From assembly GCF_000003605.2 (NCBI RefSeq), contig NW_003157237.1:53635-82277 (forward strand): a stretch of 28,643 nt of DNA, read 5' to 3'. Below are positions 401-28,109 of the stretch, piece by piece. The position numbers and the translations under genes were made by a program. Each line of letters opens with the position of its first letter. Positions within the stretch are counted from its first letter, which is position 1. Below the pieces are notes generated by a model. That model saw nothing but the letters and a program-made list of their open reading frames with translations. It was not told the DNA's origin and searched no databases. The DNA is from Saccoglossus kowalevskii. Its lineage: Eukaryota; Hemichordata; Enteropneusta; Harrimaniidae.

Positions 401-501
401 TTAGATCAATTGAGAGGTGTCCGACGTAGTCTCCTTCGTAATGTCATCGTATGAGGGCGGTGCACAAGTTGGCAAGACGACGCTTTCTTGACCTCCGGTG
501 C
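401..501 (-). CDS. Gene B last exon: second PPxY and stop
   Basis: 101 nt after acceptor tttttttatcag, entered in phase 1, encoding a 32-residue tail with CAPPSYDDITKE and ending in TAA at 403-401. A longer open frame overlaps it in another phase, but only this phase follows the 163-nt exon and gives a PPxY tail. No clear AATAAA was found in the 400 bases downstream. Confidence 0.75.
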
Positions 502-3500
502 CTGATAAAAAAATAAAAAAACTGTATTACGCCGGTATATACGAAACGATAGTGTACCTACATGTTTATACGTATAAGTAAGTGAGGTCACTGTATAAGA
601 TGGATGAGATGCTGAGAGCTGAACATTCTTAAAGGTCGCTGTACTTACCTGTTGTTTGTTCATAGGTAGGTGGTGTGAGGATGACTCGTGTAGGCACTTC
701 AATATCCGTGCTATTATTAGAACGCCTCGCCGTGTTATTACCCAATGCTAGAGCACAGATAGTACCCGTCATACTAATACCAATATCTTTACATGTGAAT
801 TTACGATATGCCTAAATAAAATACATAAACATGAATATAATAATGTGAAATAGGAATTGCGGTGATAAACTGTTTTATTCTTTTGTAGATTTGAACACAT
901 TCGGGGCAAATCAAATTAAATACTAATATCACTATACACAGCTAATACTAGCTGATGTGACCAGGGAATACAGCAAGTATACGCAACCATGGTCTCGAAG
1001 TGAGAAGTACTAAAACGACGCTCACGTACTTATAACACCAATATTTTTTGAATGATCTGTTAAATTTTAGATTTTAGATTTCACGGAAAGAATCCTAGTT
1101 GTTCAGTAGGACTAATATCCAGGTTAGCTAAAATTGAATTTGTTCTCTGTGATCTCATCTGATATTCATTGAGTTGCCCGTAAGCCTCGGCCGTCGGTCG
1201 TTAAAGGTGATCATGTTTCCCAAAATAACACCGAATTATATTAATGGAGCCCAGTGTGCAAATACATTGCATTGAAGATACAATTGTGAGGATGCGATCG
1301 TTAGGTTTCATGCTACGTTATACAACACGTGTAAAATCATTGATTACACGACGTGTTATACGACGATGGCCGATCTTCAGTCACATATCGATAATCAGCT
1401 TGAGGCCTTGTACCCTTCTGCCAATGTGACGAAACTATCAAATCACCCTAAAATAGACCGCAATCGCAATTATATATTGTAGTGCACAATTATCAAACTA
1501 ACTACAGCAAAATACATACATACATGCATACATACACATAAAACAGACAGTTTGGAGAGGAAATGTGTCGCTCAAAGGGTTAAACCTAACCGTATTATAT
1601 CATTGCACTCACCGTATAAGCTGGACACATAACTAAACAACAGGGTAGACAACAAATCCACAAGTCGACAGTTTCCGGAGAGCAATCAAAACAATGGTGA
1701 TACTTAGTGTGATTCGTGATACAAATTCTACCATACTTGCTGTAATAGCTTCCCTGGCAAAGAGTGTCTCCGCCCAATGTGTCGGCGAACCATTCCTTGA
1801 TCAAATCACTGAAGTCGAACTGTAATTAATAACAGAGTAATTAGGTAGTGTCATTTATACTATGATACTTCTGTGGTGCGTGAATATGATAGTTGCAGAT
1901 GAAATAACACTAAGTGACGATATGTTATGAGAACACTATCTATGCTATCGATGAAGAGCCATTGCTCGAAACGTCTAGCTATTTTTAATAGTTACTTAGG
2001 ACTACGATTACCAAATATTATCTACTAAATATCACAATACTATAAGTGTATTGAGTAACCTCAACAAGTAGCCAAGATATACAAATAATCGACAAAGATC
2101 GAACCTAATTCAGATTTCGGATTACTGAGCAATGCCCTAAGGGAGGAATTCTCATTAAAGATAATAAAATGGAGTAAAATGATAAATACAACCATGTAAT
2201 CGAAACAAAATGTGACATGAAGAAATATGTACATATATACATAGACCAATACAAAATAGACGTAACAATATAGAATTTCGTTATAATATTCTAAATCGTT
2301 TATAAAAAAAAACTGTCCAGTATTACAGTAACTGTTTTTACTTTTTTGTATTTTGCAGGAATCAGAAAATAAATAGAAAGTTTGAAAATATGACATTTGA
2401 ATTCCAGGTGTGTGAATTGGGATATAAACACACCTAATACGTAGTGATGTATAAAATGAAATGGATACATATAAAAAAAGATATATAGTATTACAAAAAA
2501 TAGTGGGTTTTTAACGAGGAAATGCGATCTATGGAAATCGCTGCTAAAATGACATTTTATAACATATTATTTTACAGTTTTTCTCATAAACAGATTTACA
2601 GTGAACCAAAAAACTGAAAAAAATACATATACTGTTGAATAATTGTAGACAGAGTTTGATACGAAATGTTGTTACTGCTATATGCGCTAAAATATACACA
2701 CATGTAAAAATAACTCACGAGTACTATAATACTTTAAGGATAGATACGACTAAATGTTCCACATGTCTGGCTAATTTAAACACTACGACAAAGACTTTCG
2801 GTATCGACATTGTAGAATTCTTTCGTTTTTTGGAGAAAAAAAAAACTGAAAAAAACTGATTTTGACAAGATAATTTAGAAATTTTTATTGAGAATAATTC
2901 ATAACGAAATGCATTCCCTATGCACCCATAAATAATTTTCATAATTACAATTACACAAGAATATTAAAGAAAAAAAGATAATTTGCTATATTCTCTATAT
3001 TTTTGCCTTTTATTTGTCTTGAATTATGACTATGAATTATGAAGCTGAATGATATTACAAACTGTGTAGTGTGATTACCACTTTACTTTAATAAATATGG
3101 CTTGGTAAACAAAATTTCTGCATAAAAAACGAAAGAATTTCACAATGTCGAAACGGAAAGTCGTAATCGCAGTGTTCTATTTGAAAGTGACAAAACCCTT
3201 TATGTATTTTAACTTTTGCTAGTTTGCACCACTTGCCTCTAATGCAAATTTTTCCCCATTACTTATATATTTTCTGGCTTCGTCAATACCTCTTTGCAGT
3301 TGTTCCTTGATGTGCGGATGCTTTGTGTTGACTAGAACGGCAAAATAGGCTGGAGGGAGAGAATATATCATGCAACTCGGAAAAAAATAATATATACGCA
3401 CATTACAGAATAATAAAAGCATAATAATATATGTATTTCGGATACTTGTGGTCATGTCTGGAGATTCGGCTCGTTGTTACCTATTTCACGTAAAGCTATG

Positions 3501-6500
3501 TTTTCATGCAACACAATATGTGTTGTTTACAGGATTTTATCGCTTCTACAAATACAGGTAATTGTTAGTCTGCAAAATGATACATGGGGGATAGACCACT
3601 ACCACGATGTTTTTGTTGTCATTTGTTTTATACCGTTTTTTATATAACCGTCTCCATCCAAATTGCGATTGCTTTTGGCCGCACACCTCTAAATATCTTT
3701 CAAATAAAACCCAACCACACACACACACACACCGGGGAATTTCCCCCTACCGCACCCCACGCCCCTACAACAACCAACCAACCAACCAACCAACCGGGGA
3801 ATTCCTCCGACCACAGCCACGCACTTGCATCGTCCGCCTGCACGGTGTTGTTCCATTCGAACATTCCCACAATTGGAGGCTGAAAATCAATAAATACTAA
3901 TTTAAAAAAACAAAAAAACATCCGCTATACGTATATAAATAAACGTATAGCGAATGATTTTTTTAAAAAAAATTAGTATTTAGTGACTGTGAACATTCCT
4001 CCCCAGTGGAGTGCTTCGCCTGAACATTCACCTTGAAAATTCAAGATGTGCACTGGGGGGGGGGGATTTCCCCCTTTTGAACCATACACACCGAGGGAAT
4101 TTCCCTCTACCGCACCCACTTATTGTCAATGACGGAATACCCCCCCTCCCCCTCCCCAAACGCACCGTAAGTTCCCCCTGCAAGCACAGTCAGCTGGCGC
4201 ACATCTGATATAATAAAATAATGACGCATAAAACTATTTAAGTGACAAGTTGTGAAACGCGTTTTTTAGATTCCTACAAATCAGGACAAAATACCAATCT
4301 TTCGAAAAAATATGGTCCGTTGGTGTTATATTAAGCCAACCGATAACAAAATTCGGCCGAATTCGTCGTTTTTGTGTGGAAAATCCCTTGCATACGAACA
4401 CCAAATTACACGAAGAACCTGGAACACTTTCCTGGGGTATTTGAAACAAAAAATTAGCATTCTAGCATAGCAGCCAATCAGCGACGGCCTTACACTTAGA
4501 TGACAACTCCGGTTTCAAACACCCAGCCTTAGATATCATACCTAATACGCCATCTTGTTCAGGTTAGCAAAAACTGCTGATGACATCTACAACTTTAACA
4601 AAAATTGTGCAAAATTGTGAGTTTTTGGTCAAACTATTTTGTGCCCTTGTTATCTCAATGGTTATCGAATTAATATTTGAATAACTATTAATTGTATATA
4701 CCCTGTTAATTTACTTTTGCTACTATGCGTAATTTTAGTATGTTCAAAATTTTCGGCTTTTTGGTCCCAAATTGGGTGGTTTTGTTCAAATTTGAGGCAT
4801 AGTAGCTGTATGCTGATGTTATTTTAATGCTATGGTAACCGAATGTATGATTGTTTTATCTACGAACGGAAGACAGTTATTCTGTAAAAGATCGTCTGGA
4901 AAATACGGAAAAATCTGAAAAAATGTCATCAGCAGTAAATGCTACCAAGAACAAGATGACGTGTCAGGTATGAAATTTATTCAAGACCCTCTTCAATCAG
5001 TATCTTCAATCCATCGTCGTTGATCCGTAGCTCAGAATGATTACATAAATGTACGCACTATGTTATGAAATTACGCACCGAATACATTGCACACCGTAAA
5101 TTTGGATCGATGATAATTATATTGTAACATAATGATTCATAATTAATTCATAATTTTTTGAACATTAAACTTCAATAACTTGTAATTAAAAATTTAACTG
5201 GCGGCAAGTGACAGTTCGACTGGCGTCACGTGACTTGCGGCTGGCTTCAGCCCGGTCTGTCTACCTTCTAACCAGGGAATTTCCCATACTGCACCTCACT
5301 TGCCGGGGGCCTCGTAATTTCGCAAACTATACTTCTAATAGTTTGATCGGAACGCTACAGTTCTCTGAACACACGGCGCACCATCTCCAGCAAAATACTA
5401 GTATGTGATCACATGTACAACATCGTTTAGTCTTTCCATAAAGCACTGTTTTTTCCACTGTTATGTAACGTGAACATGTAATTAAGCTTGAACTAATTAC
5501 CATATATAATAATAATAATTTTATTCAACACGAAAATCTACTACAGAGAGTAATTTTATGGTTGTAAAACAAGAACAGAAAACACCGAGTAAATATGCGT
5601 GTTCCCAGTGTACTTATATTCAGTCAGAAATTCATTCGGCACATATACCAGTTAGTCACCTTGTTTACTGGAACGTAGAACCGTCCACCCCACCGAATCA
5701 TTACCACTCCAAGCTACAATTTCGGGGTCACATGCATAGATACTGTGAACAGATTAGCTCCAATAAAAATTGAACTCCTGAGATATAGAATCGATGTGAA
5801 GTGTGAACAATACAAAGACTGTTTCTTCAAATAATTCACAACCATAGACACTAACCACCTTACCTGAAGTTATCACTCTAAAATTACCAGAACGCTTTCT
5901 GTTTTGTGAAAATACGTCTAAAAACAACGGTTTAGCCACAAAACTAGTTGCGAACACTTCAAATTCATCTTCCGTCTCTATTTGAATGAGTCTGAAATAA
6001 ATGGAGACCAATTAAATATACACACTTGGCTTGTGACATACGCGTCTACTTTCAGTAACCCGCGGACTGGGATGTGATTGGTGGAGACTACCTCAGAAGT
6101 GGACCGCCAGTATCTACAGTCAAAGTGCGAAAATGGATGACTCCTCAAACATAGGCGTTCTTCTCCCACAAAAACAAAACAAATCAACTGGTTTATTATT
6201 TCTATTTTTGAATCATTGTTTTTCCCTGATTCTCTTTCAATATCTCATTGTTCACAAATTTGACAAGTTCTGTTAATATAAATCACACTTACTACTAATT
6301 TTAGTGGGAAAAAAAACACAGCAATTTACTCAATGGACTTGGTTGTTGTTTTTCAATTATGTTTGTTATAACTATCAAATTAAATAAAATTAGCAAACTG
6401 TTCACATGAGAGTTGTGTCACCAATCTGATGTGGTACCCGCATACACGTATGACATGACAATTGCATTCAATTGTCTATGTCAATACGTGTTAACTTTCC

Positions 6501-9477
6501 CATGCTTATTACTTTAATGTTCACATTCCTACACCTATATGTAATATCTAATGTATTGTTTAAAGCCTAAACCATATTAACACTTTTATACACGCCGTGT
6601 CAAACGTCACCATGACTGTCTAGTACTCCTTATTTGGCATGTTAGTAAGTTCTAACCAATCACGTTGACTTGTGCTAGGCGTCGTAGTGACGTCACGATA
6701 TCACGTGGTTTCACTTATAAATAGGGGGACTGATGAGAAAGAGGGAGCGGAGGTTATACGGGAGCGGAGGTTATACGATAGCTGAGGTTATACGGGAGCG
6801 GAGGTTATACGGGAGGTCTGTCTCTAGGCGTGGCTGTAAAGCCATCGCCTGGAAACCAAGTTTACACTTCACTGTATTATCACTGTATCTGATGTCTCCA
6901 CGAATAAATATCCTGATTATATCACCACTACCCTCAACAGTTCAAAATATAAGTCTGTTACAGTTGTCATCCGTTCAGCGGCGTTCTGTACTAACATTGT
7001 TCCAATTTCTGCCCTGCACTGCTTTTCTATTTTGCATCTCGATGAAAGTTCATGATATATTTATCAGTTTATGATTCCAATATGTTTGCATATATCACTT
7101 CCTATTGAGATTTGATCAAGTCTTTCAAATTTGACGGTAGTCGTCGCGTCACCCATGCGCGAGATATATGGGTCTCATATAAACAAAGATGAACAGATAA
7201 ACCAGTACAAACTGAGACGTTACCAAGCTTTGATTAGGTAATTTTTAGGTGATTGGAAGGTATCGAAGGAGTCATCGGCGGTAATTAGTACAGGCCGTGC
7301 CCACATCAAACCTCATCAAACCTGGGAAAATCAAACGAAAACTCAGATGCGCACCACCACAACATACATCAAACAACAACATTAAAAAATACACGTTCTC
7401 ATCCATGATGCACCTTCAACCAGCGAATAAGTAAAATATATCATGATGTATCTTTATGTAACATAGGGGGCGCAATGAAACACCAAAAAAACGTATGTGT
7501 TAGTTCACTGTTGTTGATAGTTCAGTAAATATAAAATGACTGTTCCATTCAGTTTACACACGCGCACTTGATTACTCTTCAGCGCGACGCATGCGCATTT
7601 AGACCTATCTTATCTTTATATCCGTATATCACCTTTTTAGAAGACTACGTCATAACACAAACACGTGACCGATACATAAACTATAAACACATTATTCCGT
7701 TATCTGTATGATATGGGTTGGCAATTATTAACAAATAAACTGAAAATCGTCATGCAAAATAATTTAGAAAAAACATCATTCTACTGAGTATACGTTATAC
7801 ACAAATGTGACACATCTTGTTTGTATGTTAGTGCTTTGACCTCTAGCACTGCCCACTTATCGTCCGATAACAGGCTGCCCGTGGCACCGATCAACCAATG
7901 AGAACAAGGCGGTTCAATAATGGGCCGCGCATTGTATATTATATTGGTGTCATTACGTTATTGCACCGAACGAATAGTACATTTTACATTATATAAAACT
8001 AACGACTCTAGTTTACGGTCAATTATGTACGAACATCAATTTGCGAGGAGATGAAAAGTATTTAAAAAGTGCTAAAAGTGATCCATGATGTATCTTTAAG
8101 ACAGTCACATTTATACGTAAATTACCTCCAGGTCGTATTAATAACGCATTTGGTATTGTTCTTAAATGTTAATTCTATCGGCGCTCGCTGCTTCAAGATA
8201 ATTTCATCGAATTGGAAACAGTGATGTGAAACACAAACTTCCCGTTACTCGACGAGATCCGTCCGCTAAGTTTAGATCTTTAAATTTTAAAAGGAATCAT
8301 AAATTCTTGTGTGTTTCCCAAATGCGCATATATTTAAACTAACGCGATTGAGTATTGAAGTAAAGTAAATATTTAATTTTTTGCAGACACCAATATAGCC
8401 ATGGACAAGAAATATAGCACACAATAGCGGACAACGTTTGTGCAACTATAAGAAGAAATTATTATAGATGTTTTGGTTAAAATGTAACACACTTGGCACA
8501 GTGTTGGTGATTGTAACAATGTTATGTTACGGCGATATCCGAATGTTGATTGGCTAATTAGCGGTTGACAAGGACAGCGCCACCTCTTCAGATCTTTGAA
8601 TAGAACATATGAAATGAAGTTGAAATGAATATTCAAATATTTAAGTCTAAACACACACATGTAATGAACATGTTATCTAATTTGTTTTATTCGTGTATAT
8701 AGTATATGTGTGTGTGGTTCCGGCTCTTGTCATGCTTAGTGTAGTCATTGGTGGGTTAATCCGCCATTATTCGAACCCTGCTTACATGTATGTTTAATTA
8801 TATATTCTACTGTACAATAATTACATATTTTAATGAATACCCTGTAAGTGTCATTCACCATTAATATTAACGAAAACTGTATTTTTTTAGTTCGGGGTAG
8901 AGCAGGTTCGTGGTGACAATCTCGTGACGATCGAGTTGACCTTTTAGACGATGACATTACGCCTACTGCACAACGTACATTGAAACTGTGTTTAACTTTT
9001 ATGTAAACCCAATGTATAGATACAAGTCACTAGGTAATGACTTTACAATTCTAGTACTTACCCTCCCTGTGTATTCGGAAAGTCTGGTGCGTGTCTATCT
9101 GAGTGAACAAAAACGTTAACTCGACTGGGATCTTGGTGGACTTCGGAATGACCCCTTTCATCGTTCCACCTTATTTCAAACATGCTAGGCAGACCGTTCA
9201 AAAAGTCTTCCATTAGCGATATCCCTATCATTGGTTGTTCAGCAGGACCATCCATTCCATTGATCGGTTGGTTGGAAAAATGCGAATTGTTAAAAGCGTT
9301 GTGTGGTGTTGGAAAATGTCCGTTCGTAGTAATATTGGTCCGATTAAGAATACCCCAATGATTATGCACTGCGCATGTGTTGTTATTTGGTAACTTATAA
9401 CTGGGGTAGAACGGGTAAACCCTTAACTCGGAAATTCGCCTGACGTTTCGCCACTTGTCGTGAGATCTCCATCTCAT
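401..9477 (-). CDS. Gene B: six-exon gene for a 375-residue Cys-rich single-pass membrane protein with two PPxY motifs
   Basis: Exons on the minus strand are 9477-9062, 5991-5864, 3349-3237, 1819-1613, 811-649 and 501-401. They total 1128 nt, exactly 376 codons including TAA, and every junction is in phase (2, 1, 0, 0, 1). Residues 1-138 are Asn/His-rich with sequons near 32, 45, 48 and 63. Residues 139-219 form a charged region also found in gene A. Residues 220-288 are the FDF exon with one sequon near 255, ending in a hydrophobic segment (272-290) with about five cysteines, followed by RK. The tail 291-375 holds PPTY (335-338) and PPSY (357-360). Positive residues after the membrane segment suggest an outside N-terminus and cytosolic tail. 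No signal peptide is seen, so an upstream exon may be missing. PPxY motifs bind WW domains. Family not recognised; function unknown. Confidence 0.75.
649..811 (-). CDS. Gene B exon 5: juxtamembrane YRK and first PPxY
   Basis: 163 nt between acceptor ttttatttag and donor gtaagt, phase 0 to phase 1. It begins AYRKFTCKD, matching IYRKLTCND at the start of gene A's last exon, and ends in TPPTYEQTT. The homologous start and the exact fit to the next exon's phase make this exon secure, although its frame contains no long free-standing ORF. Confidence 0.8.
812..1612 (-). other. Gene B intron 4
   Basis: 801 nt between donor gtgagt and acceptor ttttatttag. Apart from a short (CATA)n-like run near 1514-1535, I see nothing else. 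The 61-codon plus-strand frame at 1244 looks like chance. Confidence 0.6.
1613..1819 (-). CDS. Gene B exon 4: FDF motif and start of the membrane segment
   Basis: 207 nt, phase 0 at both ends, between acceptor attaattacag and donor gtgagt. It starts with FDFSDLIKEWFADTL, includes YGRICITNHTKY with a sequon, and ends in LWICCLPCCLVMCPAYT. The gene A exon 14320-14538 has the same order: FDFKKSMSAYF, YGKIAITNCSKY, LWVICSPLCLLTLPCYL. The CC-L-P-CC cluster next to the membrane is a plausible palmitoylation site (inference). Confidence 0.85.
1820..3236 (-). other. Gene B intron 3 (GC-AG)
   Basis: 1417 nt, AT-rich, with the hammerhead-like repeat copy at 1945. A 111-codon minus-strand frame at 2061-2396 is hydrophobic and AT-driven; no splice fit was found. 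The rest holds A/T runs and nothing recognisable. Confidence 0.6.
1945..2006 (+). repeat. Dispersed repeat copy 2 (hammerhead-ribozyme-like core)
   Basis: GATGA at 1950-1954 is followed by a small hairpin GAGC-CATT-GCTC (1956-1967), then GAAAC (1968-1972) and GTC. This is the order of the hammerhead core (CUGAUGA, helix II, GAAA, helix III), but the core has TC where CT is needed, so the copy is probably inactive. Hammerhead motifs are known in Penelope-like retroelements. The assignment is an inference. Confidence 0.35.
3237..3349 (-). CDS. Gene B exon 3, ending at a GC donor
   Basis: 113 nt, the same length as its gene A counterpart. The acceptor is tctctccctccag and entry is phase 1. It encodes a helical-looking segment, VNTKHPHIKEQLQRGIDEAR, against VNTLHRTIRDQINEGLDEAK in gene A. 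The exon must end at GAG|gcaagt, a GC-AG type donor: reading on gives a stop five codons later, and only the GC site gives phase 0 and joins to the FDF exon. Confidence 0.8.
3716..3796 (+). repeat. Simple repeats (CA)n and (CAAC)n
   Basis: A (CA)n run of about nine units ends at 3732. A (CAAC)n run covers about 3768-3795. Both are followed by a GGGGAATT motif. The overlapping open frames on either strand are low-complexity and not genes. Confidence 0.85.
3893..3981. repeat. Near-perfect palindrome with ~39-bp arms
   Basis: AAATACTAATTTAAAAAAAC to CGCTATACGT (3893-3931) is mirrored by ACGTATAGCG to AAAATTAGTATTT (3943-3981) around a short AT loop, with a few mismatches in the A/T runs. It would form a strong hairpin or cruciform. 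It lies in a repeat-rich block within a gene B intron. Confidence 0.65.
4537..4972. mobile_element. Non-autonomous DNA transposon-like element with ~50-bp terminal inverted repeats
   Basis: The left end (4537-4586: CATACCTAATACGCCATCTT, then GTTC, later CTGCTGATGACAT) matches the reverse complement of the right end (4923-4972: ATGTCATCAGCAG to GACGTGTCAGGTATG) at most positions with a small gap. The interior has no coding potential. The similarity stops on both sides. No certain target-site duplication is visible. It sits in gene B's 3350-5863 intron. Confidence 0.6.
5864..5991 (-). CDS. Gene B exon 2
   Basis: 128 nt between acceptor tttatttcag and donor gtaagg, entering in phase 2 and leaving in phase 1. 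It encodes LIQIETEDEFEVFATSFVAK followed by PLFLD and a basic stretch. It aligns with gene A exon 20790-20920 (TIRVRSEEELNDVAHMLLDK followed by PFLTD), sharing the charged start, the KP(L/F) motif and D. Both splice phases are identical in the two genes. Confidence 0.8.
6656..6723 (+). promoter_or_regulatory. Promoter-like cluster: CCAAT, CRE, E-box, TATA
   Basis: In order on the plus strand there are CCAAT (6656-6660), a perfect CRE palindrome TGACGTCA (6688-6695), an E-box CACGTG (6702-6707) and TATAAATA (6716-6723). The spacing would place a start site near 6745-6755. It is antisense to gene B, inside its largest intron. No convincing coding exon follows: the 113-codon frame at 6733-7074 begins before the predicted start site. 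Confidence 0.4.
6742..6816 (+). repeat. 17-bp tandem repeat, four copies
   Basis: GAGGTTATACG recurs at 6750, 6767, 6784 and 6801 with a GGAGC(G)G lead-in, an exact 17-bp period. It starts just downstream of the TATA-like motif, so it would lie at or just after any start site. Confidence 0.8.
9062..9477 (-). CDS. Gene B exon 1 (or first visible exon)
   Basis: An open frame of 138 codons plus 2 nt runs from an ATG at 9477 to a consensus donor (GG|gtaagt) at 9062, leaving phase 2, which is what the next exon needs. The protein is rich in Asn, His and Pro in its first 75 residues, then has a more ordered stretch around EIRWNDERGH. The ATG could be the true start. A weak acceptor (gataacag) lies 13 nt upstream of it and the frame stays open through it, so the exon could instead be internal. 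No matching exon was found for gene A, so this part is either gene-specific or fast-evolving. Confidence 0.6.
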
Positions 9478-10359
9478 ATTGCACCACCTGTTATCTTTAT
9501 TTTATAAATCTTTGATTGTACATATGTTCCGTTCCAGTACCACGGGCGCCCGCAAGCAAATATCGTTGGGACAGCAAACACAAACTTGAATAATTGTACA
9601 GCCAACCGAAGCGATGAGGGATGAAAAAAACTTATATTTGCTTTAATAATGTATAATTTTCCAATATCGTTTTTTTTTTTTCAAGTAGTACAGAACAAAA
9701 TTAACAATGTGTGTATGCATCTGTGTTCAATTCAAACAGTTTTCAGTCATATATGGGTATATTACGCGACTCTCAACTGTGAATAAATTAGACTGAGGAC
9801 TGTCGACAGTCTATAATGAAGCCAAAATCCACAAATAATCATAGGACATTTTCGTACAGAACTGCTCGATTTAGTACAAGTATTCAACCAACGTTAAGTT
9901 GCATGTATATTTAACATATTCGAATAACAGTTTCAGTGTTGAAAGTTCTCTTTTTTGTGAGTAATAATAGTGTCACTGCAGGATAGGATATGAAGCTACT
10001 GGTAACTAAGACAACGCTACATTGAAGCACCGTGGTTACTAGCCTGTCTGAAGAATAGAGACGGATAATCTCGTGGAATGGTTATCAACTGATTCAGAAC
10101 GCAGCACAGCTGAACAGGAAAATAGCAAACTGTCGGCAAGACAGTATAAATTGTAAGAGTAAATTAAAAACAAATCTGTGAATTATGGTTCCAGAGGGCG
10201 CTGTCTATCATCAGGAGAATAGTCATTTTGAATTGGGATATCACAGGTTGTACATATAGCAACAATGGTTCAAACCTTTAAGACTTTTATTGAGGAATCA
10301 AAACGTCAATCAATGTTTAATTTTATTTGAAACGGTAAAGATAAAGTTAAAGATAAAGT

Positions 10360-10938
10360 ATTATGATAATTGCAGACATTGAAAGGAGTGGACTAAAAGC
10401 CCAAAAGTTTCAATGGATTAAAAAGTTTACCATGGAAGGCCAGGCAAGATGTGTTAAGTAATTTTGGTGGTAACGTACTTTAATTCTCTGCACTTACTTT
10501 GTACAGGAACTGAAAGAAATTGTTTTGCCATTCTTGTTAGATATCTGCCTTGAATGGGAAACATTTGCACAAGTTGTCCCTGACTCACCTAATATAATAG
10601 ACCATCAATGGCTTCGGAATAACAAATATATAAACATTGGGTATCATTCAGATTATTTTAAATCTCTGGCAATTAAAAATGTTAATAGAATATTGATTCA
10701 TGCGACAAAGGGGCAACCTGTGGGACTGGAATTACTGGAAAACAAAGAAATTGTCAACTATAGATTACTACATATTCATGGATTAAATTCTGCAATCCCA
10801 AAAAATTGGAAAACTAAAATTCATAATAACAGTCATAATTGCGATGAACCAGAAAATGTAATTTATTTCAATTCATCATATATACATATCAATTCATTAA
10901 CAAGTACGCGAGTATATAATAGGATCCCCAACAATTAA
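10360..10938 (+). mobile_element. Non-LTR retrotransposon (LINE) ORF2 fossil
   Basis: The plus strand encodes pieces typical of the C-terminal part of LINE reverse-transcriptase ORFs. Around 10368-10430 there is IERSGLKAQKFQWIKKF. From 10525 an open frame of 137 codons contains WLRNNKYINIGYHSDYF, then YRLLHIHGLNSAIPKNWK. The pieces are separated by stops and lack the catalytic RT core, so this is a 5'-truncated, decayed copy. It lies between genes B and A, on the opposite strand. Clade not resolved. Confidence 0.6.
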
Positions 10939-11092
10939 GTCTAGACTGGAGGAACTGTATGATGTATCGTGGCTGTGGTAGTTGTTGAAACTAGTAAAAT
11001 ATTTAATTTCTTCATATAAAAGTCATCAAAAAATGTTTACCGATTCATACAAAGTTCAGGTTCAGAAGCACATGTGTTACGAATTAAGCTTT

Positions 11093-11146
11093 CCGAAACT
11101 GAAAATATGCCTACTAGAACTTAAAATATGCCTACCAGAACTAAAA
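11093..11146 (+). repeat. Two-copy ~23-bp direct repeat
   Basis: AAAATATGCCTACTAGAACT and AAAATATGCCTACCAGAACT are adjacent copies just downstream of the LINE fossil. Confidence 0.7.
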
Positions 11147-13377
11147 TAATCACTCTCTTACAATAATTGTCCATTGATCGTGACTCTTTATTGGTGAGTG
11201 TCATTGCGAGTTGACTGATCTTATTAAGCATGCATTCCTAGACAGAACCATAGATTAATAATCAGTTTAATGGATTATTCGAATTCATATACGCAACAAT
11301 GTATATGCAGTGATGATCATTTTAATTAGAAAATAATCGGAGCACTGTATCACTAATCATATAAACGAGTTATTTATAAATCTTCTGGCAAACTTCATTT
11401 CATGGGCGACAGATACTATAAAACGCCGCAGCTACGCGTGTTATTGCAAATTACACACAATTGTCGAATGACCACAGAAGCGGATGTGTAATTGAACATT
11501 ACCACTTCGCTAATGTACACTCATCACGACAGAAAAGTATACGTTCATATCAACGTAATCTCAGGCGATAACATTGTCACGTTTTTCATATCTACACAAA
11601 ACATCGGCAATTTATATAGACGTGTTTAGTTTGCCCTATTCAACTGGATACGCACGGTAAATGTAAAGTGGCTTCTTGTATATTTATATATGAATCGAGA
11701 GGACATGTCTTTTCACCCACGTCCTCGTATACCGAACATATACACATCAACTCATTCGTGAAATACCAAGTGTTTACTGTATTCGTAATCTCGGGGAATT
11801 TTATACTGACAATGTATTAACAGCTGTACATCGGAGTTGATTTAATATTACGATATTTAAATGTTATGATTTTAGGGAACTCAGAGATTACAATTATTCA
11901 AAATTTTATTACAAATCGTCGATGACACAATATTGTAGCAATTTCGTTTGTTTTAGCTACATGAATATAGTAGAAACTATTGAGTTGGGTTAATTATAAG
12001 ATAATGTTTTTTCACACACAACGCTACCTGGACTCAGCAATGCATCCAAGTACATATTAATATTTACATATTAAATTAATTGTAATACTTATTGGAAATA
12101 ATCGGGGAGAGTGGGAGAGAATGATCAACAGTATATGATGAACTAAGCATCAATGTACATGTTTTGGGCGCTGCAATATTACAGTAATACAGGTTACATA
12201 TAAAGTATTTAAAACAACGAAGCCATTTGTAAAAAATAAATAATGCATGATTATTTACATTTATAATGCATTTATTCAGAGGAATGGATATATATTACAA
12301 TAACAGATCAAAGCCTCTTTAAGTACTACACGGTCTATATCGAATATCACTGATCTTATCTGCGTCTGATATAGCTCTTGAATGCACTTTAAACATAGCT
12401 TACACGAATAAGGTTAGCGCAATAGCGAGTAATTGCTGTTTAAAGAGGTTCACGTCACCTTTATAGTTGCTGCAAGTCACATTGTGAACCTTTATATTAC
12501 CATATTTGTTATACAATTCTGTTTTCGTTATTATCACATACAAAAATGTTTGGTTTCGTCAAAGTCAGTAACTGTAATGTTCAAATAAATAAGCACAGTG
12601 AATAAAGCAAAAAGTGTTGACCCTCCGAATAAATGTAAAAGGTTATATTTGTTGTACCCTTACAAATAGCATTTAAACTTTCTAAAATAGCTGAAGTACG
12701 AACAACTCTCAATGTGACATTTAGACTCGATTAAATCTTTAAAAATAACTGTTTTCGGATATAGTAGTGGAAAAATAAAACGTTTTTTTTTGTCAGCCGT
12801 TAGCATATTATTATTTTTGGGAGAATACGACTTATTACCAAAACTTACAATAATCGTAGTAGTGGAATAACATAAATATTATTAATAATATGAGAATAAT
12901 ATAATGAAGAATAATACATAATTTATCTGAAAACCATCTTGTCAAGACACAATTCTTGACAACACTGTATGTGTCATGTTTATATTGTGATAACTCAAGT
13001 TATATGTAACAATATACCGAATCTTATTGGCTGAGAAAAATCTCGTTTCGCAGTATACACGTTATTACGATTACGATTATTTTGAAATGTAATTATATTT
13101 TTTATCGATTCTCAAATGCAACATAAGATTGTAAATCTGAATGGGCATTCTACCTTCACACTCACACGCTTCTCTATAAACACGTACTGTGACTGCCATT
13201 ACAAGTTTATATCCATCAGACATTTTACCATGTATGTACACTTTTCTCCGTAACTATTCCTGGTGATGTTTTTAACCGGGAAATCTGTGGTGAGATGTGT
13301 GCGGGGTGGGAATTATTGACAAAGAATAAGTAGATCGAATTAGAACATTTCCGTCTCTTCTTCAGCACAAAAAAGTC

Positions 13378-13680
13378 CTACAGAATATGCACTAAGCCTT
13401 CTTTGTCATCGATGCATTTTTCCTTTTTCTTCCCCGCAATAGCCTGTACCCATTTCTTGACACGTCGCCTTGTTATTTTGGTATTTGACAATTTTGCGTG
13501 AGTAACCGCACTGGTGTAACTGCTGTCTGGCTCGGTCACGATTGTCGTCGGCGTTTCATTTTTCACAGGTTTATTCTTATAGTATTTGTTAACAATGTCC
13601 TCTTCTAGGTCATATGGAATTGGCAGTGGTTTTGATTTGACGTCGCAGTGCATGTCATTACATGTCAGTTTTCTGTAGAT
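13378..13680 (-). CDS. Gene A last exon: long basic tail
   Basis: 303 nt after acceptor ttttactcctcag, phase 0, 100 codons and TAG. It starts IYRKLTCNDMHCD as in gene B, then diverges into a Thr/Ser-rich middle and a basic C-terminus (ITRRRVKKWVQAIAGKKK). No donor is evident inside it, so a single terminal exon is the simplest model. Confidence 0.75.
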   Translation of the reverse strand: MYRKLTCNDMHCDVKSKPLPIPYDLEEDIVNKYYKNKPVKNETPTTIVTEPDSSYTSAVTHAKLSNTKITRRRVKKWVQAIAGKKKEKCIDDKEGLVHIL

Positions 13681-16600
13681 CTGAGGAGTAAAATAGAAGA
13701 AACACAATGAAATAAAATCACCGTCGGTTGCACTTCGTATGTGCGACGGATAGTTTCCTTAGTTGTGTTCAAATTAAAACTGCTGTGTTTCACTGTCAGC
13801 GCTGACTCAAATAGCATATGAGCTGTCATTTCAGTTTTAATTTCCAGTTGACTAGACGAAGCTCCAAACAAATAAATCTTACGTAAATTGCAGTTGCTAG
13901 AAAACAATGACAATTTTAAGTACTTGTATTTGAACAGATAAATGATAAACTAGTGAAAAAATAAATAAATGTACTGGAAAATTCAGCATTTTAAAGCACG
14001 CAAAATAAAATACATATATCCAATGCTAGAATGCTTGTATTCAAATTATTGTACATATCTTTATATTACGGTATGTATAAGACCTTTGATAGAGGGGGCC
14101 ATTGTGTTTACCATTCAAGTATGACTGTACATAAGAATGTATCTTACTCCCTCCACGGTGTTTGTAGTGTAATCTTTAAGCGAATATACACACCACTGAC
14201 CCAGGCATTGGACAAATTGATGCTTCGATATAAACGTATAGGACTTGTTTTAATGGAACAAACGCCGATGTAATGAGACCTTAGATCCCATTTAATTGGT
14301 TTGGGGCATGGGTGCTTACCAGGTAACAAGGAAGTGTCAGCAAACACAGCGGTGAACAAATAACCCACAGAGGGCACACCTTATCTTCAAATTTGAACAA
14401 CGGGGAATATTTGCTGCAGTTTGTGATAGCGATCTTTCCGTATCCACATCTGCAGTCTTCTAACCTATCGTGATCCTCGTCATCTCGAATTTGGATTTTT
14501 TCACAGAAATACGCTGACATTGATTTTTTGAAGTCAAACTGCAACAAATTAATATGCACATTGTTATATACTTAAATAACAGTTCATTGACCAGGTAAAG
14601 GAACTCCCATTTCATTGACCAGTTAAAGGGACCCACAATTTCATTGACCTGTTAAGGGATTCTCAATTTGGGACACATTAGAATATACACATCCGAATCC
14701 AGTGCAATACATACGTACACAGTGTAGGACTTATTACATATGTACCCCCCCCCCCAACTGCGACTCTCCTGTCAATTACTATGACAAATACGTTTTTTCG
14801 CCGAGTTTTGTACACACATTACTGTGATTTATTATTAATTGCAATCCATTGGGTTTTGCTAATGACCTTCAATTGTACAAAATTGCTTGTACGTGTAATT
14901 CAAAATATTGTTCAATGCTGCAAATTGGCATTGATTTTTGATTTACACGTTTAAAGAAAGGGAACACAACTTTGTACAAACGGTGTTTTCTTTGATTTAA
15001 TAGAAAGATTACCTAATATCAATGAATACATATTTTCTAACAGTACAAGCTTGCCTGGCGTGTTGAAACGATTTTGAAAATTGTTGGTGTCGTGATGAAA
15101 GTTTAATAATAATTGTGTGAAACAAAATTCAGATAAATGACAAATTCTCTATCGTAATCATAAAATATGATGATATGTTCACAAAAAACTAGTTTTTACT
15201 GACTTTAAAGGTATATTAATATGTGTAACAAATTTAATCTGTCTTTTTAGCTTACTATTTTGACATGCTATTTCTTTCTAATTTGTAATTGTCAACGGAT
15301 TATAGTTTGTATAATTGTAGCATATCAACATGGCAAGCAAACGATTTGTTTTATAAACAAACCGAGAAGGCAGGATAAATTGAACCCAGAATTCATGTTT
15401 TAGTCGTAAACTATGTCTTTCTCTTGTTCTGCCATGCCAATTTGTTTATAATACTGTGTTTTAAACTGCATTTATATAGATTCTGGAATTTGAAATGGCT
15501 GAATAAATAAATAAATCACAATATTGCTCTTACCTGAAGGAAGAATTTCTTGTCATCTCGCATGAGTCTTTTGGCTTCATCGAGTCCCTCATTTATTTGA
15601 TCACGAATGGTTCTGTGTAAAGTGTTGACGTAAACAAACGCATTTCCTGGAAACGAGCAAAGACGAATCATATTGAAATACTTAGATTGGTTAATGTACC
15701 ATGGCATTACTGTGCCTACTAAACTAATTGCTATTCACCAAGCATACACCTTTAAAACTAACCATGTATCCAGCTGGTTTTATTACAGAGCTAATGAGGT
15801 TTTCATTGTATATGATGAATCAGATGAAAGTATCCGATCTACTAATTCTTGCCTGTTATTACCAAGCACGTTTAGGAATAATGACCGCTGTCAAAAGTTA
15901 AATTGTAGGTGAAATCAAAGTAACACAGTATTGTTTTATATATATGGCACAGCAAACGTATAGTCATTAATTGCCTAGCCTTACTAACACCATTAAACAC
16001 GTGATGAGATCGCGGCATTTGTTTAACTCGTCTTTTTAAAACATTGATGAGAAAGCTAAATGTCATGAGAGGCAATCGACACGCAGTTGCTTGGGGACTA
16101 GGTTGACATTTTCTTAGGTAACATATCCTAGAATGCTCGAAAGACACATCATAAAGTTAAAAATACATAGGCTAGTGATTAGTATTTGACAAACCCACCT
16201 CTTTCTTTGACTCAATGTTATTTGTGACGTTTTGACGGCACACATTGTTATCGGTTATTTGTCTTATCAGTTCATTAACAGTGTTATATACAATTCTTGT
16301 GACATAGTCATTGTTAAAAGTCAATAATTTGTGAATGTTAGCTTTGAACTATTTTACTGAAAAAAACATACAAGAGTCACAATTCATATGAAACCCCCAA
16401 AATGCTCATAATATATTTTTCGTGAGCTGAATGTGTTTTCAATAAACAGGAAACAGGCCAGCTGCTAATAACTCAGGCGCATTTCACGCTAGATAACATA
16501 TATCTGAAAGTGGATGAGGCTCCAGATGTCCAGATGTCCAGATGAGGCTCCAGATGCTTGGACATCACTGGATGAATATCCGATCAATCAGGTATTTGCG

Positions 16601-19600
16601 TTGATGCATGGTGAGGGCGAAAACAAATACAGATACAAATGCATTGAATAATTTCCAACATTTTAAAAATATTTTTGTGTCAGACGACAGTTGCGGACAT
16701 TGAATGCCACTGCAGTCTCTCCTATTTTTCATGTTCAAATTGCAAGTGCTGACATTAAGTTTGTTACAGAAACTTAATTATCGTAATTCATGTTTGGGAC
16801 TACATGGCAACATAACGGGCTTTATTTTCATTCAAACTTTACATATAATACATACATATTTACTTTAAAAAAAAACAGAGTAAAATGACACTGTTTGACC
16901 CCAAAGTCACCCTTACCATGCTCAGAATCAAAAACAAAATGTACGCACAACTGTATGGTCTATTGATACACCTTAGTAGTAAATTTCGTGAAAAAACGGT
17001 CAAAGCGTTTCAGAGTTATGACGCAGCAAATATTTTTTAGATTTTGTGGATAAAAATGACAATTTTGAACTCCAAAAGACACTTAACATACACAGATACA
17101 AAAACAGATGTATGTGGGGCTTTGTCATTGACCTAATGACTTGTTATTATTATGTTATATCATCAATATAACTGGGGGTTTTATTCGGCGAGAAACCACC
17201 TAATTGGGTTTGGGCTTGTGTATTATACCGTGGGAGATTGCTTTGCCCAAGCCTTCAGTCATGGAATGCTTTATTCTACGATGAACGCCGCCTTTGTATA
17301 AATGTCAATTCGTTCAGACTACGTTTTCAGTTATAATTCTCAATTTTCGTAGCACATAAAATTTAACATGCTTATACGATAACAAAATTAACGTCACATC
17401 ATTTAGGAGCCAATTGAGTAATCCTCTGACGGTTAATATGCAGCAATTACGTCAGCAATTACGTCAGATAATGGTGTATCATACCATAGCGAGTTGTTGT
17501 CTTTAATTATAGTGTCACTACCGGATGTAAGTGTAAAATTAAAAACGCGCATTTCCAAAGGTTGCGTTTTTCATTTCAGTAATGGCAGTTCGCGTGATCC
17601 GGGCCTAAAACACGATTAATTGACCTTGACTCTGAGACTGAGCATTTATATCACGTAATCCGTAAAAGTGCTTTATCATTAAATTGAGGTAACAGTGGGT
17701 ATTATTGGATATTATTTTTTTATTCCATGTCCTAGTAGTTGTTCTATTCCGTATACGCGCCACACAGTCTTCTAGTAATGAGGAAGGGTTTGTCATGTCG
17801 AGCCTAATGCGATATGGCCTCTCATCTATGCAGTATTAACTTTACTAGCACCAAGGTAAAGGATAAGAGACTGATCTTACCGTCTTAGTGAAATCGCTAT
17901 CACATACTTCAATCTAAAACACGGCAACCTTCTGCCCCGAGGTAATAACATTGCAAAGAGTGTACTAGTGCAATACAATTTGCATGGTTGCTAGGAAACA
18001 AGATGTGACACCGTGCAATCTTCTTATCACTGTCCGTGTCTACAATCATTTCCAAACGTTCAAGAAAGATCCAAATGATCAAATGACTTCAATGTTGACA
18101 CATTGTATTTCAAATTGCTAAACCAACAATTCTACGTTTCGTATTTAAATCGTTTCGCTTAGCTGTAATTCAAAACTCTCAGGATATCAACGTGCCGACC
18201 TTGTTGCCAACAATGCCGGAGACATCTGTCCGCCTGGTGTTTCGGTACAATATTATTTGTTTATTTTCTTCAACCAAGAACATTATATATTGCGAGTTAT
18301 TATCAAATAATAAATAATCTTTGGGAATAATTACATGCAACTGCAGGTATGGGCAATTCTCATTATTTAGTACTTGTTATAAGTAGTCTGTAAGATGATA
18401 GAATAGTAAGTATAGTGAAAAATCAGCACATATGTTCCTCTGACCGATTCTCAATATAATGACGTATTCATTGTTCAACACACTGCATCACGGGAAAAAA
18501 GCAACACAAATGACATTTGCGCCAAACAACTCGTACTAGTACATACATTTCTAATGGACATAACAATGCACAGTTATTTCCTTTCCAAATTCGAAACCCC
18601 GTCTAGTGCCTCAAAAAAGTATTTGATAAAAGAGGACACCGCATACATGTATTACAACAATGACATATCAGGATATAATTACGGTACGATTGGTTTACAC
18701 TCAAATTCGCGGAAACCAAGCTTTCACACAAAAACCTGCTATGAATTTTCCCCAAGATTATCACAAAACACAAATAAATGAGGTGGGTGATTGACATTCA
18801 AATGCATTTATAAATTTAAATAATGTTGTAAACTGATTGTCTCAACATGGCTCAGAAGCATTTTACAATGTTTGTGTTCAAATCTCATAAAAAACAAGTC
18901 TCAGTGCACGAGATTTCCTATTACATTGAGTAAGCTGCAGTCACGACGACCGAAATACGATATATAAAAAACTTAATAACGGCAAGTAAAACCAAAAAAA
19001 ATATTCATAAATAATCAAAAATAACAATAAAAAAATATATAAATTAAAAATATAAATATAAAAAAAAACTTAAAGACTATAGCTGCATCGAATTATAATC
19101 ACATTGATCACCATATGCAATGGAAAGTAACGAGAGCGGTATCCATCAATGTGATAAAGTATTATGCTAACCAAGGGATTATAACCACCATTACAGGTTA
19201 CATTCAATCAAACATTCTATATTCTAATTCCAACATTTGAAAAAAAACTATATATATATAAAGTGTTTCTTTGCTCATGAGGTATATTAATATTGTGAGT
19301 ATGCGCACACTTTTGTATGTGATTCCATGCATGAACATAACTGTTATGTATGTGATTTCATGCATGAACATAATTGTTATGTATGTGATTCCATGTATGA
19401 ACATAACTGTTATGTATGTGATTCCATGTATGAACATAACTGTTATGTATGTGATTTCATGCATGAACATAACTGTTTTGTATGTGATTTCATGCATGAA
19501 CATAACTGTTATGTATGTGATTTCATGCATGAACATAACTGTTATGTATGTGATTTATATGAGCATAACGGTCATGTATGTAATTGCAAATATGAACATA

Positions 19601-20920
19601 ACTGGTATGTACGTGATTTCATGTATGAGAATGAGATGTTGTTTATTTAAATGGCGTCGTTCAAAAACAAATACATTTGTATACTAAATCATTTACATTG
19701 AAGAAGATTCTAACTATTTTATTTTAGTATAAACCTGAAATATTTCAGAGCTGATGTTAATTAATACATTTTGCTATGAATTATATATCCTAGCCTTATT
19801 CTAATTGGATATAAGTGGGCTACTCCCGCTGTGTTTTCACCTCCCTTTATTGATGGGAATGTGTAGTAAATTATGCTTATCTGAATTTTTAGAGAATCTT
19901 GTCAATGTGTCGAGAATTTAAAAACTGTGTAATCCCCTCGGTGTGACCTGCCATGATTGCATGATTGAATAGTTTCTTTAATTTCCCTATGGGAAACTCA
20001 CACAACCGATAAGCTGTGTAGAGTTAGGCTATTATTCTTAGTATTAGTGATAGTTGTGTTTGCGTTATTTATCATGCTGTCAGACTCTAGCTTTGATTTA
20101 CTCCACTTATATCAAATGGCTCACATTACAGAACCCGTTTAAATCTGACTAATACAAGAACCCTATTCGTTGAACAAAACATTAATACACCAATGTTAAT
20201 CTATAATTAACCATTTTTATAGACGTTTGGGTTGTACAGAACTATAGAAATGCAAACTGTAAATATTTGTGAAACAGTAGGAAGAAGATGAAATATCATG
20301 TGTTACTGTAATTGTACATAAGTTGTCAAACAAGCTGTACACACTTCACGCGTAATCTAGCCACGAAATCCCTGTGTGACGTCAGCATGAAATACTGTAA
20401 AATACTTTCTTTTCGCTTGGTATTTATTTCCGTTATCTTCGCTATTTTCAGTGAAAAATCTTTTTAGCAAAAAATAATTCCAGTAAAGTATTTTACAGCA
20501 AACGGTTCAAGTGCAATGCCGTTTTTATATTTATAGCAAATCTCTATAAACATCTGTTTTTATTCACGTACGGTTTATTACGTAACATTCTTGAACAGCG
20601 TTTAATATAGCTACAATGACACTTTAATAACTGCAACTGTTCGACTTTCGACATGACATTATATGCCGTTCGCACTTGAAAAACTATATCACTTCCAGCT
20701 TGTTTATTTTAGTCCAATGGGAGAACTGCGAATAAATCCGTATAGACTCAGCCACATTCTAACGTTAATCTAGTCATATGTGTACCTACCCTCAGCTGTG
20801 TAAACTCTGGCAGGAAAACAGACTTCCACTTTTTCCCATCTAATATCAGTCAGAAATGGTTTGTCCAATAACATGTGTGCAACATCATTTAATTCCTCTT
20901 CTGATCGAACTCTGATAGTT
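13378..20920 (-). CDS. Gene A: paralogue of gene B, C-terminal four exons (5' end not resolved)
   Basis: Exons on the minus strand are 20920-20790, 15646-15534, 14538-14320 and 13680-13378, giving about 254 residues to TAG. Intron phases (2 at entry, then 1, 0, 0) equal those of gene B. In order it has a charged region, an amphipathic helix-like segment, the FDF exon with Cys-rich stretch and sequon, a membrane segment of about 20 residues (CPLWVICSPLCLLTLPCYL), then IYRKLTCND and a 100-residue basic tail. Where gene B has PPTY, gene A has only LPIPYD, and gene B's last small exon has no counterpart. At least one upstream exon ending in phase 2 is required. Alternatively an ATG at 20997 reads straight through the acceptor, but the acceptor's position is conserved in gene B. 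Family unnamed; likely single-pass membrane protein. Confidence 0.7.
14320..14538 (-). CDS. Gene A FDF and membrane-segment exon
   Basis: 219 nt, phase 0 at both ends, acceptor ttaatttgttgcag and donor gtaagc. It begins FDFKKSMSAYFCEK, has an acidic stretch DDEDHDRLEDCRCGYGK, the conserved ITNCSKY, and ends in the hydrophobic CPLWVICSPLCLLTLPCYL. It is 12 nt longer than in gene B, with extra cysteines in the DCRC motif. Confidence 0.87.
14582..14669 (+). repeat. Three-copy ~28-bp tandem repeat
   Basis: TTCATTGACC recurs at 14583, 14611 and 14640, each followed by (A/T)G(G/T)TAA(A)GGGA and a CAATTT-like end. It lies in gene A's intron, just upstream of the FDF exon acceptor. Confidence 0.75.
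15534..15646 (-). CDS. Gene A exon matching gene B exon 3
   Basis: 113 nt between acceptor ctcgtttccag and donor gtaaga, phase 1 to phase 0. It encodes NAFVYVNTLHRTIRDQINEG followed by LDEAKRLMRDDKKFFLQ. Length is identical to the gene B exon, and the donor is an ordinary GT where gene B uses GC. Confidence 0.85.
16880..17113 (+). repeat. Two diverged direct copies of a dispersed repeat unit, ~173 bp apart
   Basis: AAAATGACACTGTTTGACCC to AGAATCAAAAACAAAATGTA (16881-16942) resembles AAAATGACAATTTTGAACTC to AGATACAAAAACAGATGTA (17054-17113). The text between them (AAATTTCGTGAAAAAACGGT, then CAAAGCGTTTCAGAGTTATG) is repeat-like too. No coding potential. Confidence 0.5.
17446..17473 (+). repeat. 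Two-copy 14-bp direct repeat
   Basis: CAGCAATTACGT is repeated back to back with a CAG link. Confidence 0.7.
18960..19075 (+). repeat. A-rich low-complexity tract
   Basis: Mostly A and T with runs such as AATAAAAAAATATATAAATT. No gene or hairpin is seen in it. Confidence 0.8.
19315..19640 (+). repeat. 33-bp tandem repeat, about nine copies
   Basis: GTATGTGATTYCATGYATGA plus ACATAACTGTTAT repeats with an exact 33-bp period from 19315 (next at 19348, 19381, 19414, 19447, 19480, 19513, 19546); the last units are diverged and shorter. Because 33 is a multiple of three, two plus-strand frames and one minus-strand frame stay open for over 100 codons. These frames are a by-product of the repeat, not genes. 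It lies in gene A's 5.1-kb intron. Confidence 0.9.
20393..20500. mobile_element. MITE-like element, copy 1 (TRCTGTAAAATACTTT inverted repeats)
   Basis: The left end TACTGTAAAATACTTTCTTT matches the reverse complement of the right end, TGCTGTAAAATACTTTACTG. The interior holds TTTCGC / GCGAAAA-type subrepeats. A related element lies at 25024-25150. The element is about 108 bp, non-coding, in gene A's large intron near the 20790-20920 exon. Confidence 0.6.
20790..20920 (-). CDS. Gene A exon matching gene B exon 2
   Basis: 131 nt between acceptor tttaatattttcag and donor G|gtaggt. Entry is phase 2 and exit phase 1. It encodes TIRVRSEEELNDVAHMLLDK, then PFLTDIRWEKVEVCFPARVY. The same acceptor position and phase in gene B support splicing here rather than translation from the ATG at 20997. 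Confidence 0.8.
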
Positions 20921-21826: not shown

Positions 21827-21962
21827 TTAATATGCACGGCGTTATTATCAATGTTAGTAAACAACATTACGCAGCGTTACACAAAAGTTTATTTCCTGAT
21901 TTTTTAAAATTCTTTTAGCAGAACGTGGTTGTCAAATTACAGGTAATATGTACGAAATAGTT

Positions 21963-22180
21963 CATAGCCTGGACGGTACTAATACAACCCGTCCACACCC
22001 TAAATAATCCATAGGCTGGACAGGACTAAAGTAATACTCCCACAACCTACATAGTACATAGGCTGGATGGGACTAAAACTACCCCGCACCATAAATAATC
22101 CATAGTATGGACGGGACTAAAATACCACCCACCCACACACACCCTAAATAGTCCATAGGCTGGATGGGACTATTTAGTCC
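21963..22180 (+). repeat. Imperfect minisatellite, five units of ~44-52 bp
   Basis: CATAGGCTGGACGGGACTAA-like cores start at 21963, 22010, 22057, 22101 and 22153, separated by C-rich spacers ending CCCTAAATAATC. Units differ in length and sequence, so the array is old. Confidence 0.75.
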
Positions 22181-23569: not shown

Positions 23570-23943
23570 TAGTTTTCCACAGTGTTTACAGGAAACGCTC
23601 CCGGATTTCGGTTCATTAGCCACAATCGATATTATATATAGTTACTATGTGTAAATATTTACTAGTCGCCAAACGTGATATGCCCTGCGATAGCTGAACA
23701 AATCACTTAATTGAACAAACATAGTTAGAATGACAAATTGGAAGTGTAGCCCGAGGATTTGATAGTTTATGCTAATTCTCAAATTAGATTTCATGCTCAC
23801 AAGGCAACTACTGAGACTGAATTTTTTCATGTACTCATATAGAAACATTGGGGTCCGTCGTTAAGTAATTTGACGTCATCGTTAATACACAAAGGCACCG
23901 ACACATTCAAAATATACTTGGTAACGAAAATTATGAGTTAACA

Positions 23944-24226
23944 CAGAACGACACGTGGTCTTCCTCGCAGCCTACATCTCATTGCATCGTAAAACAGAAC
24001 GACACGTGGTCTTCCTCGCAGCCTACATCTCATTAGATCGTAAAACAGAACGACACGTGGTCTTCCTCACAGCCTACATCTCATTGGATCGTAAAACAGA
24101 ACGACACGTGGTCTTCCTCACAGCCTACATCTCATTGGATCGTAAAACAGAACGACACGTGGTCTTCCTCACAGCCTACATCTCATTGGACCGTAAAACA
24201 GAACGACACGTGGTCTTCTTGATACA
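23944..24226 (+). repeat. 51-bp tandem repeat, about 5.5 copies, each core with an E-box
   Basis: Units start CAGAACGACACGTGGTCTTC at 23944, 23995, 24046, 24097, 24148 and 24199. They are nearly identical, so the array is young. Each contains CACGTG (23952, 24003, 24054, 24105, 24156, 24207). The period is a multiple of three, which gives an artefactual repetitive frame. It abuts the reverse-transcriptase fossil. Confidence 0.92.
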
Positions 24227-28056: not shown

Positions 28057-28109
28057 TCAATTACAACATTCTGTATCATATATCATTATGACTGTTCCTT
28101 CCGATTGTA

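What the first reader, a model, noticed from the sequence alone, without database searches (positions are those of the whole stretch)
401..20920. Tandem pair of unnamed membrane-protein genes with conserved exon structure
Genes A and B share four consecutive homologous exons with the same phases and near-equal lengths, and gene B joins into one uninterrupted 375-residue frame over six exons. The shared core is KP.xxD, VNT, (I/L)DEA, an FDF exon start, ITN(H/C)(T/S)KY, LW..C.P.CL, and YRK(L/F)TC.D. I do not recognise the family; it may be a lineage-specific, locally expanding one.
Basis: partly seen in the sequence, partly recalled or inferred. Interest (0 to 1): 0.75.

Follow-up and report, generated by a model that had tools for sequence, protein, structure and literature searches.

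The report
Four-member orphan membrane-protein gene family
Two neighbouring animal genes really are old duplicates of one another with matching exon layout, belong to a small family of at least four genes that matches no catalogued protein family we searched, and probably make membrane-attached adaptor proteins, but their job is untested.

Summary
On the minus strand, a six-exon gene (401-9477; 375 residues) and a four-exon, 5'-incomplete gene (13378-20920; 254 residues) lie head to tail and match exon by exon with the same intron phases. Not mentioned in the finding: a GC-AG intron and two C-terminal PPxY motifs in gene 1, and gene 2's missing first exon. Two more members in the same genome keep the exon order and phases; a hand-made consensus found no convincing fifth. 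Identity to gene 1 is only 26-37%, so the duplications are old, not a recent burst. Genes 3 and 4 lie at contig ends and the window ends its contig, so one broken cluster is possible but unproven. Pfam-A, NCBIfam, PHROGs and PDB sequences give no credible match. Best reading, largely inferred: a cytosolic domain held on a membrane by a cysteine-rich hydrophobic segment; gene 1's PPxY pair would recruit WW-domain ubiquitin ligases. Lineage-specificity could not be tested: no other animal genomes were available. An undescribed family, but otherwise ordinary gene duplication.

The parts
9062..9477 (-). Gene 1 exon 1 (from the first ATG after an in-frame stop; 139 residues). Its end, RVNVFVHSDRHAPDFPNTQGG, has counterparts in genes 3 and 4
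5864..5991 (-). Gene 1 exon 2
3237..3349 (-). Gene 1 exon 3, followed by a GC-AG intron (donor GCAAGT)
1613..1819 (-). Gene 1 exon 4, ending in the cysteine-rich hydrophobic segment
1625..1663 (-). LWICCLPCCLVMC, the putative membrane anchor of gene 1
   Evidence: hydropathy maximum 1.63 over residues 270-288; place
649..811 (-). Gene 1 exon 5
662..673 (-). PPTY, first PPxY motif of gene 1
401..501 (-). Gene 1 exon 6 with the stop codon
449..460 (-). PPSY, second PPxY motif of gene 1
20790..20920 (-). Gene 2 first found exon (matches exon 2 of gene 1); no exon 1 found upstream
15534..15646 (-). Gene 2 exon matching exon 3
14320..14538 (-). Gene 2 exon matching exon 4, with LWVICSPLCLLTLPC at 14326-14370
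13378..13680 (-). Gene 2 terminal exon; first residues match exon 5, then its own basic tail; no PPxY

Best explanation
These are two members of a small, old family of animal protein-coding genes with at least four copies in this genome. Shown by sequence: homology, exon order, intron phases and protein-level constraint. Inferred: the protein has no signal peptide; a conserved domain of roughly 130 residues (exon-1 tail to exon 4) stays in the cytosol and is held on a membrane by a cysteine-rich hydrophobic segment, possibly S-acylated; the C-terminal tail, different in each copy where it could be read, decides what is recruited. In gene 1 the tail carries PPTY and PPSY and would bind WW domains of NEDD4-type HECT ubiquitin ligases, so it would act as a membrane adaptor that brings such a ligase to cargo. 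Genes 2 and 3 lack the motif and would have different partners.
For: Exon-by-exon homology among genes 1-3 only between corresponding exons; same phases in four genes. In all six gene pairs, aligned codons of exons 2-4 are most alike at position 2 (0.55-0.62), then 1 (0.44-0.54), then 3 (0.25-0.37), as protein constraint predicts. The hydropathy maximum lies in the cysteine-rich end of exon 4 in the three genes tested: 1.63, 1.86, 1.74; gene 4, not tested, has IICCPCITCGVC at the same place. Two PPxY lie in gene 1's 87-residue tail; 4 of 100,000 shuffles of that tail hold two. The genome has 67 exon-level HECT matches (NEDD4-type not told apart, WW domains not searched). PPxY-dependent recruitment by small membrane proteins is reported for LITAF and Itch (PMC3033906, abstract and section list) and NDFIP2 and NEDD4 (PMC10611234, passages).
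Against: PPxY was found in one of the four members; genes 2 and 3 lack it and gene 4's tail is not defined. Over the whole 375 residues, at least one PPxY arises in 4.7% of shuffles, and the motif was noticed before it was tested. A section heading of PMC3033906 says LITAF is unable to alter Nedd4's localisation, so PPxY does not act alike on every ligase. Hydropathy is borderline for a transmembrane helix. Topology is open: gene 1 has eight N-glycosylation sequons, four of them in residues 32-65, which could mean an outside N-terminus. No transcript, orthologue or usable fold: the exon-4 model had mean pLDDT 51 and was discarded.
Confidence: 0.4

Rival explanations
1. Single-pass surface protein with the conserved domain outside the cell and the tail inside, a receptor or adhesion molecule.
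For: Four N-glycosylation sequons in residues 32-65 of gene 1; basic residues (YRK) just after the hydrophobic segment of genes 1 and 2 suit a cytosolic tail; several cysteines in the domain.
Against: The N-terminus of genes 1 and 4 is not hydrophobic, so no signal peptide is visible by eye (no predictor was run); the sequons lie in an asparagine-rich stretch; only one cysteine before the hydrophobic segment is kept in all four members, which does not suit disulfide pairing.
Confidence: 0.25
2. Same family, but the function lies in the membrane segment itself (for example membrane stress or lipid binding, somewhat as in CYSTM proteins), and the PPxY pair of gene 1 is incidental or a degradation signal.
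For: The cysteine-rich segment is present in all four genes while PPxY was found in one.
Against: Exon 3, well N-terminal to the segment, is the best-kept exon in Z, and no CYSTM match appears in Pfam-A.
Confidence: 0.25
3. Recent, locally expanding, fast-evolving family.
For: Head-to-tail pair; gene 3 lies within 6.5 kb of the end of a 300.8 kb contig and exons 1-4 of gene 4 within 5.7 kb of the end of a 318.5 kb contig, which would follow if one cluster was broken in assembly.
Against: Four members found at 26-37% identity to gene 1; third codon positions only 0.25-0.37 alike.
Confidence: 0.07
4. Decayed or non-coding remains.
For: Gene 2's first exon is not found on the contig, and the conserved exon-1 tail of gene 3 is closed upstream by a TAA.
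Against: Gene 1 is complete with consensus splice sites; codon-position pattern of constraint in all six pairs.
Confidence: 0.03

Closest known systems
LITAF/SIMPLE
   Same: Small membrane-associated protein with two PPxY motifs that recruit a WW-domain ligase, Itch (PMC3033906, abstract); cysteine-rich part recalled
   Different: PPxY is N-terminal in LITAF, C-terminal here; no LITAF-domain match in Pfam-A
NDFIP1/2 (NEDD4 family-interacting proteins)
   Same: PPxY motifs on an adaptor that binds NEDD4 (PMC10611234, passages on NDFIP2)
   Different: No Pfam match; one candidate membrane segment here, three in NDFIP (recalled)
CYSTM (cysteine-rich transmembrane module)
   Same: Cysteine-rich hydrophobic segment
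   Different: CYSTM proteins are small and tail-anchored (PMC10217909, abstract start in search listing); here a domain of roughly 130 residues precedes and, in genes 1-3, a tail of about 90-100 residues follows; no Pfam match
Phospholipid scramblases (recalled)
   Same: Cysteine-rich acylation motif and PPxY in some members (recalled)
   Different: No Scramblase match in Pfam-A

Membership tests
The paralogous family defined here | Homology of exons 2-4 in the same order | tested here: met
   All three pairs among genes 1-3; gene 4 by tblastn and alignment, not by the shuffling test
The paralogous family defined here | Intron phases 2, 1, 0, 0 | tested here: met
   the first rests on the acceptor side only in gene 2, the last on the donor side only in gene 4
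LITAF / NDFIP / scramblase / CYSTM / IFITM / PLAC8 | Match to the family's Pfam-A model | tested here: not met
   No Pfam-A family listed at E up to 10 for joined genes 1, 2 and 3 or for any of the four cores; that these families have Pfam models is recalled
NEDD4-type adaptors (works like) | PPxY motifs | tested here: met
   Two in gene 1; none in genes 2 and 3; gene 4's tail not defined
NEDD4-type adaptors (works like) | Binds WW domains through PPxY, on a membrane | not testable with these tools
   needs binding and localisation assays
Membrane proteins | Hydrophobic segment long enough to span or enter a bilayer | tested here: inconclusive
   Kyte-Doolittle 19-residue maxima 1.63, 1.86, 1.74 in genes 1-3
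Lineage-specific (lophotrochozoan) family | Absent from other animal phyla | not testable with these tools
   no other animal genomes or protein sets could be searched

The most novel reading that the evidence does not exclude
An undescribed animal membrane-adaptor family with its own fold, in which paralogues share a membrane-anchored domain and differ in exchangeable tails, one of which has gained a PPxY pair to recruit NEDD4-type ligases.
Probability: 0.25. Interest if true: 0.45.

Novelty: new member of a known kind. Interest (0 to 1): 0.3.

Why it matters
It adds a checked gene model and a four-member family with a clear signature to the stock of animal genes with no family name, and gives a concrete test (does gene 1 recruit WW-domain ligases to a membrane?). 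Duplicated orphan genes are common in animal genomes (general knowledge), so the wider surprise is modest.

Tried and rejected
Family look-ups gave nothing credible. Pfam-A on nine exon ORFs gave three weak hits at E 0.098-0.14 (interferon gamma, DUF4921, SpoVIF), each on one exon ORF; none appeared on the joined proteins. NCBIfam best 0.032, one member; PHROGs 0.029 and 0.21, one member each. PDB sequences: the best E of the four searches were 1.4, 0.71, 0.46 and 1.2, to unrelated proteins. The consensus gave Pfam sCache_4 at 0.17. All taken as chance. PADLOC was not searched.

Viral contigs: no relative in two scans. The exon-4 structure model (three sequences, mean pLDDT 51.4, pTM 0.34) was discarded and not searched. 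Rfam: none in the window.

The rest of contig C4666 (L001-L006, 53,634 bases, 25,512 of them N) showed no further family exon: best E 1.6. A possible decayed exon 3 at window 27940-27984 (minus, VLDEAKRFAKEYLDN) was seen by eye; tblastn did not list it at E 20, and it is not counted. Weak places at C1596 (E 5.45) and C2039 (E 6.93) were taken as chance. C1596 scored E 6.6e-4 against gene 1 in a small four-locus database, but as one stretch running across gene 1's exon 4/5 junction, with no convincing second exon, and it did not come up with genes 2, 3, 4 or the consensus.

Joining contig ends into one cluster was looked at: C2387 and C4666 end in tandem repeats, C3419 does not visibly start in one, and no shared end was seen by eye. 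Blast between the window and stretches of C2387 and C3419 gave five short matches only. Literature searches were for context; none looked for this family by name, so nothing is claimed about print.
Full report
What was claimed. Both are on the minus strand, head to tail, 3.9 kb apart.

Gene 1's six exons join into 1128 bases without an internal stop, 375 residues plus stop; introns are 3070, 2514, 1417, 801 and 147 bases. Four of its five introns are GT-AG and one, after exon 3, is GC-AG with the donor GCAAGT. Gene 2's four exons give 254 residues plus stop, with introns of 5143, 995 and 639 bases. The two proteins align over 167 columns with 33% identity, E 5e-25 for the pair.

More members. 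The window lies at the right end of contig C4666 (82,277 bases) of a 572 Mb genome in 4830 contigs. Searching that genome with gene 1 gave 10 places: seven in the window, two in a third gene at the right end of C2387, and one (C1596, E 5.45) taken as chance. Gene 3 found a fourth gene at the left end of C3419. Both keep the exon order and phases 2, 1, 0, 0, and gene 3 also keeps the phase-1 intron before the last exon. Searches with gene 4 and with gene 2 gave six places each and added none. A hand-made consensus gave 14 places: 13 belong to the four genes and one (C2039, E 6.93) was taken as chance. The tool searches exon by exon, scores only the best candidates and calls its counts lower bounds, so 'four' means 'at least four'.

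Protein constraint. Over exons 2-4, the six gene pairs, compared at 137-142 aligned codons each, are 0.44-0.54 alike at codon position 1, 0.55-0.62 at 2 and 0.25-0.37 at 3. That is the pattern of conserved protein over much-changed silent sites, and it speaks against recent duplication. MAFFT identities to gene 1 are 33% and 30% for gene 2 (two alignments), 37% for gene 3 and 26% for gene 4.

Missing and broken ends. A scan with the exon-1 tails of genes 1, 3 and 4 scores 70.7-78.3 at those three genes, by construction, and at most 16.3 elsewhere in the window, in L018 and L031, or in five control stretches, so gene 2's first exon is either off the contig or changed beyond recognition. Gene 3's conserved exon-1 tail is closed upstream by a TAA, while a start resembling gene 4's lies in another frame. 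I describe this and mend nothing.

Place in the genome. Gene 3 lies within 6.5 kb of the end of a 300.8 kb contig, exons 1-4 of gene 4 within 5.7 kb of the start of a 318.5 kb contig, and gene 2 within 15.3 kb of the end of the 82 kb contig. If genes fell at random, being that near either end has chances of about 0.043, 0.035 and 0.37, so only the first two are striking, and this was asked after the fact. C4666 and C2387 end in tandem repeats. One cluster broken by repeats would fit, but no contig ends were shown to adjoin.

What the protein is like. Sixteen columns are the same in all four members, among them P77, D81, V103, V105, N106, F137, D138, C157, T171, N172 and C193 of the alignment's first row. 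In genes 1-3 the most hydrophobic 19 residues lie in the cysteine-rich end of exon 4, running one or two residues into exon 5 in genes 3 and 2 (1.63, 1.86, 1.74), and gene 4 has a similar segment. This is borderline for a transmembrane helix; S-acylation is my inference. No signal peptide is visible by eye in genes 1 and 4; no predictor was run.

PPxY. Gene 1 has PPTY at residues 335-338 and PPSY at 357-360. Two such motifs arise in 4 of 100,000 shuffles of its 87-residue tail, in 0.094% of shuffles of the whole protein, and at least one in 4.7% of the latter. The motif was noticed before it was tested, so these are not clean p-values. Genes 2 and 3 have none; gene 4's tail is not defined. The genome holds HECT-domain matches at 67 places (places are exons, not genes, and NEDD4-type ligases were not told apart).

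Comparison with what is known. No Pfam-A, NCBIfam, PHROGs or PDB sequence match is credible. LITAF, NDFIP, scramblase, CYSTM, IFITM and PLAC8 all have Pfam models (recalled), so membership in them was tested and not met, though distant kinship below HMM reach remains possible. Gene 1 may still work like LITAF or NDFIP2, whose PPxY motifs recruit Itch and NEDD4 (PMC3033906, abstract and section list; PMC10611234, passages). The LITAF paper also has a section headed 'LITAF is unable to alter the cellular localization of Nedd4', so partners differ.

Verdict. A real, old, small family of at least four paralogues, unnamed in the libraries searched. The membrane-adaptor mechanism is inferred at about 0.4. 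Whether the family is lineage-specific cannot be told here.

Noticed in passing
window 10474-10938 (+): Open frame of 154 residues that looks like a retroelement fragment to the eye; no Pfam match at E 0.1.
   Followed up: partly
window 19314-19628, 23939-24218, 28102-28643: Tandem arrays with units of 33, 51 and 35 bases; the last runs to the contig end and may have broken the assembly.
   Followed up: partly
window 21955-22172: Tandem array of a unit of about 47/91 bases, AAATAGTCCATAGGCTGGA....
   Followed up: no
window 3237-3349, donor just below 3237: GC-AG intron in gene 1 where genes 2, 3 and 4 have a GT donor.
   Followed up: yes
L018:1073-2252 (C2387): Two overlapping open frames of 213 and 182 residues upstream of gene 3; the second has a weak IQ-motif match (E 0.0021, 18.1 bits, below Pfam's cut-off of 20.3).
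   Followed up: partly
window 27940-27984 (-): VLDEAKRFAKEYLDN resembles part of exon 3 of the family; possible decayed copy or chance, not listed by tblastn.
   Followed up: no
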